Source of the DNA: Arthrobacter citreus
GTDB lineage: Bacteria > Bacillota > Bacilli > Bacillales > Bacillaceae_G
Length of the DNA stretch: 64,000 nucleotides
Direction: 5' to 3'
Assembly (NCBI GenBank): GCA_013200995.1
Contig: CP053688.1
Coordinates: 2,604,001 to 2,668,000, forward strand
The notes beneath the pieces were generated by a model that saw nothing but the letters and a program-made list of their open reading frames with translations, searched no databases and was not told the origin of the DNA. The position numbers were made by a program, and so were the translations under genes. Below are positions 3,508-23,520 of the stretch, one piece after another. Positions within the stretch are counted from its first letter, which is position 1; each line of letters begins with the position of its first letter.

Positions 3508-3674
3508 AATTATGTTATCTCACTTTCCAACTGTACTTCATAGTTGTTAATTTTCTCATCATGTATAAGGTATTGTGATATACCTTCTCTAATTATATAT
3601 GTAATTTTACGATGTGTCCCTTAATTATTTTTAAAAGTCTCCATTGGATATCCGACACCTCTTAAATTAATGCA

Positions 3675-3701
3675 TAAAAAAAAAAAGCAGTTAATAACTG
3701 C
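3675..3701 (-). terminator. Rho-independent terminator after the 70-aa gene
   Basis: GCAGTTAATAACTGC is a perfect short hairpin. On the minus strand it is followed by a run of more than ten Ts. It ends the transcript coming from 4043. Confidence 0.75.
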
Positions 3702-3705
3702 CTAT

Positions 3706-3815
3706 CAAGCTGTTGAAAAATGAGTTTGTCAATTAAGGATTAATATTTTTCAATGTAAAGGAAGCTGTTTGATGTTGATTTCCACTACAGGATTCTCGCT
3801 TTCCACGGGACGAGA
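3706..3815. repeat. Degenerate Bacillaceae-type interspersed repeat
   Basis: Contains gctgttgaaaaatgagtttg and, further on, gatttccactacagg followed by ctcgctttccacggg. The part tgtaaagg..gatttcyactacagg recurs near 50454-50481, and the ctgttgaaaaa part recurs in inverted form near 22010. From memory, related GATTTCCGCTACAGGCGG..CTTTCCGCGGG elements are frequent between genes in Bacillaceae. Confidence 0.55.
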
Positions 3816-3830
3816 TTCTTGTCAATCACT

Positions 3831-4043
3831 CTAGTTGTTTGAGTTGCCTTCCCCTAATTCGTGTTCATATTCCATCACTTGCTTCTTATGTTTTGTTTTA
3901 AGAAAAAAATAGGTAGACATTATTATAATTGCAAAAAGTGTAATGATAAAACCTGCACTAATTAATTTAAGAATTGTAAATTGCAAGTCTAGCATACCAA
4001 ATTTATGTGCCTGATTAATCGTTTCATTTGTTAGGTTATCCAT
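3831..4043 (-). CDS. Small single-pass membrane protein
   Basis: 70 aa. A short polar N-terminus is followed by one long hydrophobic segment (about residues 24-48, ILKLISAGFIITLFAIIIMS), then a basic stretch KTKHKK and an acidic, Asn-rich tail. The start is well supported: AAGGAG lies 9 nt before the ATG. It is a single gene with a terminator downstream. I do not recognise a family. The layout (one membrane segment, basic cytoplasmic side) fits a small membrane-anchored protein of unknown role. Confidence 0.7.
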   Translation of the reverse strand: MDNLTNETINQAHKFGMLDLQFTILKLISAGFIITLFAIIIMSTYFFLKTKHKKQVMEYEHELGEGNSNN

Positions 4044-4218
4044 TCACTTGACTCCTTTTTATTATTGATCCGACTTAAGATATACAACTTACATTCGCTT
4101 AAGTAATGGAAGTATTTTGATTAATTATATCAATACCGATCGTTTTTGTGTTAGAAATTTTTTCCTTTTTTATGTAAATTCAGAAAATTTTCATTAGGCT
4201 AGTGTACAATTTACTCCA

Positions 4219-4244
4219 TAAAAAAATCGACTATATAGCCGATT
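4219..4244 (-). terminator. Rho-independent terminator
   Basis: On the minus strand AATCGGCTATATAGTCGATT forms a stem including one G-U pair, followed by six Ts. It closes the transcript of the gene ending at 4299. Confidence 0.65.
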
Positions 4245-4298
4245 AAGTTGTGTAACAAACGCTTCGGCTAGTTGCCTAGTACCTCTACTACATTCTTC

Positions 4299-4715
4299 TT
4301 ATTTATTGTGTAGTGGAACGATTTCACGAATCGTTTTATTTTTAATTTTATATTCTACCATGACTTCAATTTTTTCATTTTTTTCAGGTTTACTTGTCAT
4401 GTCAACAAAACCACTATCGTTTACCTTCGTTTTTTCTTCCCAAGCTCCTCCTCCTGCTTCTGTTTTATTGTTCACTAGATATGCAGAATGCAGGATTATT
4501 GCTTTACGATAATCCCGTGTTGTACCCGTCCAACGGAATTCACCATCGTAATGCCCTTTTAGCCCTTCAGATAAGACGGCTTGTATATTTCCATCCTTTG
4601 TTGTTCCTACCCATATATTTGTTTCGGCAGCTAATTTTGGTGACTTCGATAAATTAATGTAAAAGACGTAAAAGATAACGAATAGTATAGCACCTAAAGA
4701 CAATATTTTTTTCAT
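4299..4715 (-). CDS. Exported or membrane-anchored hypothetical protein
   Basis: 138 aa from the preferred ATG at 4715, which has AGGTGGG 4-5 nt upstream; the frame is open to 4748 but lacks a ribosome site there. A hydrophobic signal/anchor follows MKK (residues about 4-21). The rest is a small, polar, beta-rich-looking domain beginning ETNIWVGTTKDG, without cysteines. No family recognised. It probably faces the outside. It is a single gene with a terminator 55 nt downstream. Confidence 0.7.
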   Translation of the reverse strand: MKKILSLGAILFVIFYVFYINLSKSPKLAAETNIWVGTTKDGNIQAVLSEGLKGHYDGEFRWTGTTRDYRKAIILHSAYLVNNKTEAGGGAWEEKTKVNDSGFVDMTSKPEKNEKIEVMVEYKIKNKTIREIVPLHNK

Positions 4716-22066: not shown

Positions 22067-23041
22067 TTAATTTGCCTTGAAATTATAAAGTGGTTTAATA
22101 ACTTTGATTACTTCTATTGCGTCCTTTGTATTTTCAATAATTTCGTTCATTTCCTTATAAGCCATTGGACTTTCATCAAGCGTACTTTCTAAAACTGATG
22201 TACTCCAAACATCCTTCATTGTTTTTTTAAACTCATCAAGGGAAAGTGTAGCTTTTGCTTTTGTACGACTCAGAATTCGACCAGCACCATGAGGAGCAGA
22301 ATAATTCCAATCTGGATTACCTTTTCCAATTGCTATTAAACTCCCATCTCGCATATTAATCGGAATTAATACTTTTTCACCTTTTTGAGCAGAAATTGCC
22401 CCTTTACGAAGAATCATATTTTCAAGATCAATATAATTATGCACGGTCGTAAATTGTTCTACAACGGTTAAATCCATATTCTGCACAATCTCATCCATCA
22501 TTGCCTTACGGTTCCATAAAGCATATTCTTGGGCAATTGCCATATCGTTCATATAGCGATCAAACCATTCTCCTTCTAAATAGGCTAAATCCTTTGGAAT
22601 ATATTGAGGCGGATTATTTTTTAATGCAGTCTCAATTTCTTTTTCACGGCCTTCATTCTTTAATTGCTGAACGATCTTTGAACGATTTTCTGACTGACTT
22701 TTTAATAACCCATAGGCTTTTTTCTGATAAAATTCCGCTACAACCTTGCCTAAATTTCGGCTTCCAGAATGAATAACGAAATAAATATTTCCATCCTCAT
22801 CCGCATTACATTCAATAAAATGATTTCCACCACCAAGTGACCCCAAACTTAGCTTTGTTCTAGTTTCATTTAACTCTTTAAAACAATAAAGCTTAGAAAA
22901 ATCAATATTTTTCACAAAAGCATGCTTATTATTACGAATTGAAAACCCGGATGGAACATGTTTACGGATGACCTGGTCTAGCTTTTGAAAATCAATTTCT
23001 TTTTGAGAGATTCTTATTGTTTCCATTCCGCAACCTATATC
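22067..23041 (-). CDS. rtcB: RtcB RNA ligase, 3' exon
   Basis: C-terminal 324 residues of RtcB, which joins a 2',3'-cyclic phosphate (or 3'-phosphate) to a 5'-OH RNA end using GTP and Mn2+. The exon begins with GATATAGGTTGC (DIGC), the Asp and Cys metal ligands, then METIRIS. Further active-site His are visible in GGGNHFIEC, VIHSGSRN and TVHNYID, and the guanylylated His in SAPHGAGRILSR. The first 15 nt of this exon precede the only in-frame ATG (23026). Without splicing this part would have to start there and would lack both ligands. It is separated from the 5' exon by an ORF-less insert read as a group I intron. No archease gene is nearby. Confidence 0.9.
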   Translation of the reverse strand, partial: DIGCGMETIRISQKEIDFQKLDQVIRKHVPSGFSIRNNKHAFVKNIDFSKLYCFKELNETRTKLSLGSLGGGNHFIECNADEDGNIYFVIHSGSRNLGKVVAEFYQKKAYGLLKSQSENRSKIVQQLKNEGREKEIETALKNNPPQYIPKDLAYLEGEWFDRYMNDMAIAQEYALWNRKAMMDEIVQNMDLTVVEQFTTVHNYIDLENMILRKGAISAQKGEKVLIPINMRDGSLIAIGKGNPDWNYSAPHGAGRILSRTKAKATLSLDEFKKTMKDVWSTSVLESTLDESPMAYKEMNEIIENTKDAIEVIKVIKPLYNFKAN

Positions 23042-23307
23042 GTACTTTAACCTCTAATTTCTTAGAGAGTGGACTATACCTTCACTACAATCATCGGAGT
23101 ATGCAGCTCCTAATGTAGGCCCGCCGTGTTAATTATTCCTTTATTTTTATATGGAATAATTCCGCACAATTGTCTGCTAATAATGTGCAAGTCTCTGAAC
23201 CATTTGACTACGTCACCATAGCCTCTGGCTGCTGATTGCCCTCGACTTATTTACGTTAGGGTTTCCAGCAATTGAGCGAGTTTTTTAACGTTGGAGCCGT
23301 TCTAGTT
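23042..23307 (-). ncRNA. Group I self-splicing intron inside rtcB (predicted)
   Basis: A 263-266 nt insert without ORF separates RtcB residues ..NLVGV and DIGCGMET... It folds as a group I core on the minus strand. P1: exon 23317-23308 (CGTTGGGGTT) pairs over all 10 positions with the guide GGCTCCAACG at 23298-23289, with U-G at the 5' splice site after GTT. P3: CTCGCT (23280-23275) with GGCGGG (23125-23120). P4: TGCTG (23270-23266) with CAGCA (23234-23230). P7: GACT (23193-23190) with AGTC (23075-23072), inside ttcagagactt and ggtatagtcc. P9: CTCTAA/TTAGAG at 23067-23052. The 3' splice site is uncertain. A cut before GAT (23041) restores GVDIGC but leaves a terminal C; a cut after the G at 23045 gives the usual terminal G and adds one Tyr in frame. 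Confidence 0.88.
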
Positions 23308-23520
23308 AACCCCAACGAGATTTGGAACAATTTTATCTTGAATCGTCATCGTAGTCCCAATCGTACATCCCTTCCCTGCATGAGTATCAGGCATAATTCT
23401 AATTTTCGAATTTTTCACGAACTCTTGATTACATAGTTCAATAATTTGCCCAATGGCACCTTGATCAACATTATCTGTAAATATTTTAGCTTCATTAAAT
23501 GAGCCGTTAACTGTAAGCAT
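23308..23520 (-). CDS. rtcB: RtcB RNA ligase, 5' exon
   Basis: First 71 residues of RtcB, from ATG at 23520 (GGAGAAC upstream) to GTT at 23308. It includes the signature MPDTHAGKGCTIGTTM and ends PNLVGV. Without splicing the frame would stop four bases into the insert (TAG at 23304-23302), giving an inactive 72-residue peptide. Spliced to the 3' exon it gives about 395 residues with all metal and guanylate ligands. No mutation other than the insert is visible in either half, which argues against a decaying pseudogene. Confidence 0.9.

What the first reader, a model, noticed from the sequence alone, without database searches (positions are those of the whole stretch)
23042..23307. Group I intron inside the RNA-ligase gene rtcB
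Two open frames are clean N- and C-terminal parts of RtcB, broken exactly between V and the DIGC motif that carries two metal ligands. The insert is 263-266 nt, has no ORF, and supports P1, P3, P4, P7 and P9 pairings on the minus strand, including a 10-bp P1 with the exon and a 6-bp P3 across about 150 nt. Group I introns in bacterial protein genes are rare (known in recA, nrdE, nrdF and phage genes); I do not recall one described in rtcB. It is striking that an RNA ligase depends on RNA self-splicing for its own expression, and that RtcB itself can seal or possibly interfere with intron ends.
Basis: partly seen in the sequence, partly recalled or inferred. Interest (0 to 1): 0.95.

Follow-up and report, generated by a model that had tools for sequence, protein, structure and literature searches.

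The report
A-ending group I intron in rtcB
In bacteria of the genus Gottfriedia, the gene for an RNA-repair enzyme (rtcB) is interrupted by a group I intron, a piece of RNA predicted to cut itself out, and its last letter is likely A where nearly every known relative has G, so it would be a rare natural test of how such introns finish splicing.

Summary
Fourteen distinct same-site introns fold alike: 95.2% of pair cells are standard, and 70 are changed on both sides against 22 in shuffles. It sits between GU and CGAU, inside GV|DIGC, in 8 of 13 genomes of the genus, in phages CM1, Goe20 and Goe27, in two prophage-like contigs and in two viral contigs. CM1, Goe20, Goe27 and contig L131 carry an HNH endonuclease gene within it; the window copy has none. 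Both exons are under purifying selection (dN/dS about 0.04). No splicing was measured. The idea that an RNA ligase depends on splicing is weakened by a second, uninterrupted RtcB gene in 7 of 8 carriers.

The parts
23309..23520 (-). rtcB exon 1 (70 codons plus GU of codon 71, ...PNLVGV)
   Evidence: PF01139 match E 7e-07; ratio of mean dN to mean dS 0.039 over 28 pairs of 8 Gottfriedia loci
23043..23308 (-). group I intron, 266 nt, no ORF of 50 aa or more within it, stop codon TAG just inside the 5' end
   Evidence: RF00028 56.1 bits, E 1.3e-13; covariation
23289..23317 (-). P1: 23317-23309 (exon 1) with 23297-23289 (guide sequence), splice-site U.G at 23309/23297
   Evidence: U.G in 14 of 14; 9 pairs in the window
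23120..23280 (-). P3: 23280-23275 with 23125-23120
   Evidence: 6 pairs, 100% of cells paired in 14 sequences, 2 pairs changed on both sides
23230..23270 (-). P4 (23270-23265 with 23235-23230), P5 inside
   Evidence: 100% of cells paired in 14 sequences (P4 96.2% in the alignment of 13)
23199..23229 (-). P6 and P6a
   Evidence: P6a: 3 pairs changed on both sides, 100% paired
23071..23195 (-). P7 pseudoknot with the G-binding site: 23195-23190 with 23075-23071
   Evidence: identical in all 14 sequences
23131..23188 (-). P7.1 (23188-23184 with 23168-23164) and P7.2 (23161-23153 with 23139-23131); the phage copies carry the HNH gene in the P7.2 loop
   Evidence: P7.1: 3 pairs changed on both sides; HNH: phrog_2255 E 1.9e-22 in CM1; P7.2 and the gene's place are read from the alignment and are not in the pair counts
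23085..23118 (-). P8 (23118-23114 with 23089-23085) and P8a
   Evidence: 4 and 3 pairs changed on both sides
23052..23067 (-). P9 hairpin
   Evidence: pairs in the window; 74.7% of cells paired in the alignment, where the phage hairpins are out of register
23043..23045 (-). intron 3' end GUA: GU pairs with AC at 23070-23069 (P9.0), last base A at 23043
   Evidence: GUA|CGAY in 11 of 14 distinct introns; AAG or AGG|CGAU in 3 of 14
23039..23301 (-). P10: exon 2 start 23042-23039 (CGAU) with 23301-23298
   Evidence: C-G and G-C in 14 of 14; third pair in 7 of 14, not in the window; fourth in 13 of 14
22067..23042 (-). rtcB exon 2 (C + DIGCGM... to stop)
   Evidence: PF01139 match E 9.4e-53; ratio of mean dN to mean dS 0.046

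Best explanation
The 266 nt at window 23043-23308 (minus strand) match the group I intron family and interrupt rtcB between GU and CGAU (GV|DIGC), and they are predicted to splice themselves out of the rtcB transcript to give an intact 395-residue RtcB, with A as the likely last intron base instead of the usual G. Likely course (inferred): P1 presents the U.G splice site; GTP bound in the unchanged P7 site cuts after GGGGU; P10 (CG with CG) and P9.0 (AC with GU) then dock exon 2 so that the A at 23043 takes the place of the terminal G; exon 1 attacks there and is joined to CGAU, giving VGV-DIGC. The origin is most likely homing: Bacillus phages carry the same intron at the same rtcB site with an HNH endonuclease gene, and the Gottfriedia copies would have lost that gene and now pass with the chromosomal gene. 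Shown: the family match, the fold, the distribution, selection on both exons, the bases at the 3' end. Inferred: splicing itself, the exact splice sites and the use of A, homing.
For: Rfam RF00028 56.1 bits against cut-off 50. 69 pairs in 14 distinct same-site introns: 95.2% standard pairs (34-37% when slid by 1-3 columns), 70 both-side changes (shuffles 22.2 +/- 3.9, 0 of 500). Reading frame: joining GU to CGAU restores VGVDIGCG; 79 loci have one match spanning the site, 4 of them read-throughs of the intron, and the other 75 (some hold the same gene twice) have G-x-D with no insertion between. Goe20, Goe27 and contig L131 end in AAG or AGG|CGAU, which puts an ordinary final G right before CGAU. 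P9.0 AC:GU is intact in the 11 A-ending introns and absent in the 3 G-ending ones. P10 C-G and G-C 14 of 14. dN/dS 0.039 and 0.046 for the exons; the intron outside P7.2 differs by 0.041 on average against exon dS of 0.30 and 0.50, so exons and ribozyme are both maintained. HNH genes inside the introns of CM1, Goe27, Goe20 and L131 (phrog_2255 E 1.9e-22, 2.5e-22, 8.7e-21, 4.2e-18). ND5-717 of mushroom corals lacks the terminal G yet gives perfectly ligated exons in vivo (PMC6545197 passages); A at that position is also reported in a sea anemone (PMC8146996 passages).
Against: No RNA was measured. P7, which binds the terminal G, is unchanged between A-ending and G-ending copies, so nothing visible adapts the site to A; from recalled biochemistry A there slows step two, and ND5-717 splices less efficiently than the other intron of the same mitochondrial genome. 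A G stands two bases upstream (AAG-UA), and canonical use of it would give a frameshift and, in the window, an early stop. The window P10 has only C-G, G-C and A-U with one mismatch. The shuffle control ignores relatedness, and 8 of the 14 rows are one genus. Further pair types do not exceed shuffles (244 of 500). P7 and most of P4-P6 never vary, so covariation is silent on them. The Gottfriedia copy L013 scores 48.9 bits, just under the Rfam cut-off.
Confidence: 0.8

Rival explanations
1. It splices at an ordinary G two bases upstream (AAAG|UACGAU). For the protein to survive, the 5' site would have to shift too, giving LVG-Y-DIGCGM (cut after GGG) or VGV-Y-DIGCGM (cut after GGGGUU).
For: Keeps the final G. 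Some RtcB proteins have Y before D (P. horikoshii GYDINCG, alignment). The bases UAC are present in all 11 A-ending copies.
Against: Cutting after GGG breaks the U.G rule, and the same P1 stands in Goe20/27, where GGGGU|CGAU with a final G is in frame. No P9.0 pair (the bases before that G are AA, AC, UA, AA) and no P10 at UACG. Of the 75 uninterrupted matches none has Y at that place or an insertion.
Confidence: 0.08
2. A dead relic: the intron no longer splices and rtcB is a pseudogene.
For: The last base departs from the rule; a second RtcB gene exists in 7 of 8 carriers; one prophage-like copy (L019) has a frameshift in exon 2.
Against: dN/dS about 0.04 on both exons over 8 genomes of different species and an intron core more conserved than synonymous sites; no internal stop in either exon of the 8 Gottfriedia copies; one carrier (G010) has no other RtcB match.
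Confidence: 0.06
3. The two frames are translated as separate polypeptides that assemble, without RNA splicing.
For: Annotators list the phage pieces as separate proteins.
Against: In the window the first ATG of the C part is the M of DIGCGM, so D and C of the metal site (ligands by recall) would be lost. The insert is a conserved ribozyme fold.
Confidence: 0.03
4. The insert is another regulatory RNA, for example a SAM riboswitch.
For: Sub-threshold SAM_alpha matches, 24.2 bits in the window and 15.7 in L013 against cut-off 36.
Against: They overlap P1 to P5 and are below the curated score; the group I matches are far stronger.
Confidence: 0.01

Closest known systems
Introns of the same site in Bacillus phage rtcB (CM1, Goe20, Goe27) and IMG/VR contigs L019, L020, L131, L132
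   Same: Same insertion site and core; P1 and P10 alike; L131 and L132 hold the identical intron
   Different: CM1, Goe20, Goe27 and L131 carry an HNH gene; Goe20/27 and L131/132 end in G and lack the P9.0 pairs. The stretches seen of the CM1, Goe20 and Goe27 records list coding genes only, no intron feature
Hexacoral mitochondrial intron ND5-717 (ends in A)
   Same: Group I intron that ends in A; ligated exons seen in vivo (PMC6545197, PMC8146996 passages)
   Different: Mitochondrial, carries genes in P8, no known relation to this intron
Bacterial group I introns in recA, nrdE, nrdF and flagellin of bacilli
   Same: Group I introns in chromosomal protein genes, some similar to phage introns; [quoted passage not shown])
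   Different: Other host genes; no A ending mentioned in the passages I read
Second rtcB intron site in phages Goe17, 278BB001, BSP36, Goe20, Goe27
   Same: Group I intron in rtcB (RF00028 68.3 bits in Goe17, 67.4 in Goe27), also in an active-site motif (GGG|NHF)
   Different: Other site; LAGLIDADG_3 endonuclease in Goe17 (E 1.9e-11). In Goe20 and BSP36 the site is judged from pieces and annotated layout only

Membership tests
Group I intron (RF00028) | Covariance-model score above curated cut-off | tested here: met
   56.1 vs 50 bits in the restricted scan, 52 in the genome scan; the whole-window gathering scan gave no hit
Group I intron (RF00028) | P3-P9 core with P7 pseudoknot, supported by covariation | tested here: met
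   21 of 69 pairs changed on both sides, 0 of 500 shuffles as high; P7 itself never varies, so covariation neither supports nor contradicts it
Group I intron (RF00028) | U.G pair at the 5' splice site in P1 | tested here: met
   14 of 14
Group I intron (RF00028) | Terminal G at the 3' end of the intron | tested here: not met
   A in 11 of 14 distinct same-site introns, G in 3 of 14, given the exon border inferred from frame. Near-universal, not absolute: ND5-717 ends in A, so filing as a group I intron stands
Group I intron (RF00028) | Self-splicing with GTP | not testable with these tools
   needs RNA in vitro
Mobile (homing) intron | Encodes a homing endonuclease | tested here: not met
   No ORF of 50 aa or more within the window copy; HNH genes in same-site copies of CM1, Goe27, Goe20 and L131
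RtcB RNA ligase gene | Both parts match PF01139 and join in frame at VGV-DIGCGM | tested here: met

The most novel reading that the evidence does not exclude
A lineage of bacterial and phage group I introns has moved its 3' splice site two bases past the old terminal G: the old G became part of a new P9.0 pair (AC:GU) and A became the last base. The old G remains as a second, frame-breaking 3' site, so the two sites compete and set how much RtcB is made.
Probability: 0.15. Interest if true: 0.8.

Novelty: new variant of a known kind. Interest (0 to 1): 0.62.

Why it matters
The terminal G is held to be universal because it must enter the G-binding site in P7 for exon ligation. Here is a set of sister introns at one site, with the same P7 and the same splice-site pair, of which 11 end in A with P9.0 intact and 3 end in G without it: a natural experiment on what can stand in for the G. 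It also adds rtcB to the few chromosomal protein genes of bacteria known to hold such introns, and links them to phages that still carry the homing gene.

Tried and rejected
Splicing at the upstream G, a relic, split polypeptides and a riboswitch were considered (see rivals). Intron identity exceeds exon identity between the window and L020 (82.4% against 73.1% and 71.2%), CM1 (75.6 against 69.8 and 65.4) and Goe27 (72.7 against 70.3 and 59.4, exon 2 only up to its second break). This is modest and structural constraint could explain it, so homing rests more on the HNH genes and on L131, whose exon 1 is only 35% identical in protein.

A motif script with a faulty pattern returned nothing and was redone. 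Two of the six pattern hits (L133, L134) show no rtcB exon 1 and a different frame behind the motif and were dropped. L096 has an rtcB break near residues 122-161 with no Rfam match; left open. A plasmid search gave one 59-base match to a LAGLIDADG gene of Cytobacillus, not followed. A genome of another family (G172) has a 48-base match, not followed. A pattern for the 3' half of the intron over 398 genomes of the class matched the window's own genome only.

Rfam scans depend on how much sequence is given: in a joint scan of six loci L013 and L004 gave no match; alone they score 48.9 (below the cut-off of 50) and 86 bits. L002 and L001 stay below it (30.1 and 26.7 bits), as does L131 (23.3), probably because the endonuclease gene splits the match.

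Literature: 'group I intron' with 'rtcB' gave 19 papers, 18 listed (titles and abstract starts seen; in one, PMC5871332, passages). Four terms on Bacillus phage, tRNA splicing ligase, homing endonuclease and intron gave 0. 'phage', 'RtcB', 'self-splicing' gave 10, 9 listed (passages of PMC7824862). Searches gave 2, 5, 14, 5, 131 (20 listed) and 45 (10 listed) papers. Nothing that I saw describes an intron in rtcB or an A-ending bacterial group I intron. Most full texts were not opened, and most papers of subscription journals are not held. Subgroup IA, the metal ligands D and C, and RtcB and group I end chemistry are recalled where so marked.

Full report
What is there. On the minus strand two frames encode the N and C parts of RtcB, broken between V71 and D72 (PF01139 E 7e-07 and 9.4e-53). 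The insert of 266 nt (23043-23308) matches Rfam RF00028 at 56.1 bits, E 1.3e-13. A scan of the whole window at the gathering threshold missed it. The genome-wide search found it at 52 bits and a second group I intron at 86 bits.

Relatives. 8 of 60 genomes hold the intron DNA, the window's own included, all 8 among the 13 of its genus; 8 of 19 in the family; 9 of 397 drawn from the order, the ninth being a 48-base match only (with the L020 intron as query). An exact core pattern over the collection of 84,980 species gave 5 stretches, named Bacillus sp. (4) and Gottfriedia luciferensis (1). All five named loci share the window's DNA upstream of rtcB; the two that reach far enough downstream (L016, L017) share it there too. 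In phages the best hits are CM1, Goe27 and Goe20, within rtcB. Of 648 phage records with an RtcB match 60 were listed; 6 of the 60 show the gene in two or three pieces. Two viral contigs, L019 and L020 (98.0% identical over 1469 bases of this region), have the intron in rtcB beside genes that look to me like prophage tail and lysis genes. Two more, L131 and L132, hold one identical intron in a very different rtcB (exon 1 35% identical).

Structure. For 14 distinct same-site introns a fold of P1, P3, P4, P5, P6, P6a, P7, P7.1, P8, P8a, P9, P9.0 and P10 was counted: 95.2% of 960 cells paired, 21 of 69 pairs changed on both sides, 70 such cells against 22.2 in shuffles, 0 of 500 as high; sliding the partner by one to three columns drops pairing to 34-37% (much the same on 13 sequences). 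The number of further pair types does not exceed shuffles (244 of 500). P7 never varies. P9 of the phages is out of register in this alignment, and P1 of L131 is gapped. P7.1 and P7.2 suggest subgroup IA (recalled). HNH genes (phrog_2255, E 1.9e-22 in CM1, 2.5e-22 in Goe27, 8.7e-21 in Goe20, 4.2e-18 in L131) sit in the region of the P7.2 loop; the Gottfriedia and L019/L020 copies have a short loop there, L013 a somewhat longer one.

The last base. The 5' site GGGGU|U has the U.G pair in 14 of 14. Exon 2 = CGAU restores VGVDIGCG. In Goe20, Goe27 and L131 the base before CGAU is G, as the rule demands. In the other 11 it is A, in GUA|CGAU or GUA|CGAC. There GU pairs with AC behind P7 (P9.0), and the three G-ending copies lack this pair. 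A Proteus phage relative in DNA polymerase has AU pairing with AU directly before its G, read by me from the sequence printed, which supports the placing of P9.0. The thyA intron of the same genome ends in G (both flanks match PF00303). Use of the G two bases upstream in the window would read GTT GGG GTT ACG ATA TAG, a stop. ND5-717 of mushroom corals lacks the terminal G and still yields ligated exons, though less efficiently than its neighbour intron (PMC6545197 passages).

Selection. Over 28 pairs of 8 Gottfriedia loci the ratio of mean dN to mean dS is 0.039 (exon 1, 70 codons; the ratio is undefined in some single pairs) and 0.046 (exon 2, 324 codons, range 0.021-0.081); the intron outside P7.2 differs by 0.041 on average, against dS of 0.30 and 0.50. 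Both exons and the ribozyme are thus kept. I found no uninterrupted orthologue in the genus: G001 has an uninterrupted RtcB with GTTGGTGT|CGATGTCGG at the site, but it is only 53% identical to the window's protein; a short match in G002 (L032) was not examined. 7 of 8 carriers have another, uninterrupted RtcB-like gene (39% identical in the window's genome); G010 has none.

Verdict. A real group I intron, phage-related, in a host gene new as far as my searches reach, with an unusual 3' end. Splicing and the use of A remain to be shown.

Noticed in passing
L004:1511-1791 (genome G000:C1 near 693561-693801, outside the window): A second group I intron, 281 nt by my reading of the flanks, interrupts thymidylate synthase (QLYQR|SADIF) and ends in G; RF00028 86 bits, both flanks match PF00303.
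   Followed up: partly
L100, L101 at about 1430-2520; L002 at about 3567-4656: A second intron site in phage rtcB, inside the active-site motif GGG|NHF, with a LAGLIDADG_3 endonuclease gene in Goe17; Goe27 carries introns at both sites, Goe20 and BSP36 look alike by annotated layout.
   Followed up: partly
L019, exon 2 of rtcB: The prophage-like copy L019 has a frameshift in exon 2, the 98% identical L020 does not.
   Followed up: no
L096:1855-3004: A viral-contig rtcB is interrupted by about 1.1 kb near residues 122-161, with no Rfam match.
   Followed up: partly
L009/L018 intron 5' end: One Gottfriedia intron lacks the stop codon in P1 (TAACGAAATCGG); by my reading exon 1 runs on to a stop in the P5 loop, and its P10 has four pairs.
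   Followed up: no
L122 (Vibrio phage VnaP): The terminase large-subunit gene appears to hold two introns; the second one would end GUG with the same AC:GU P9.0, read from the sequence and not tested with Rfam.
   Followed up: no
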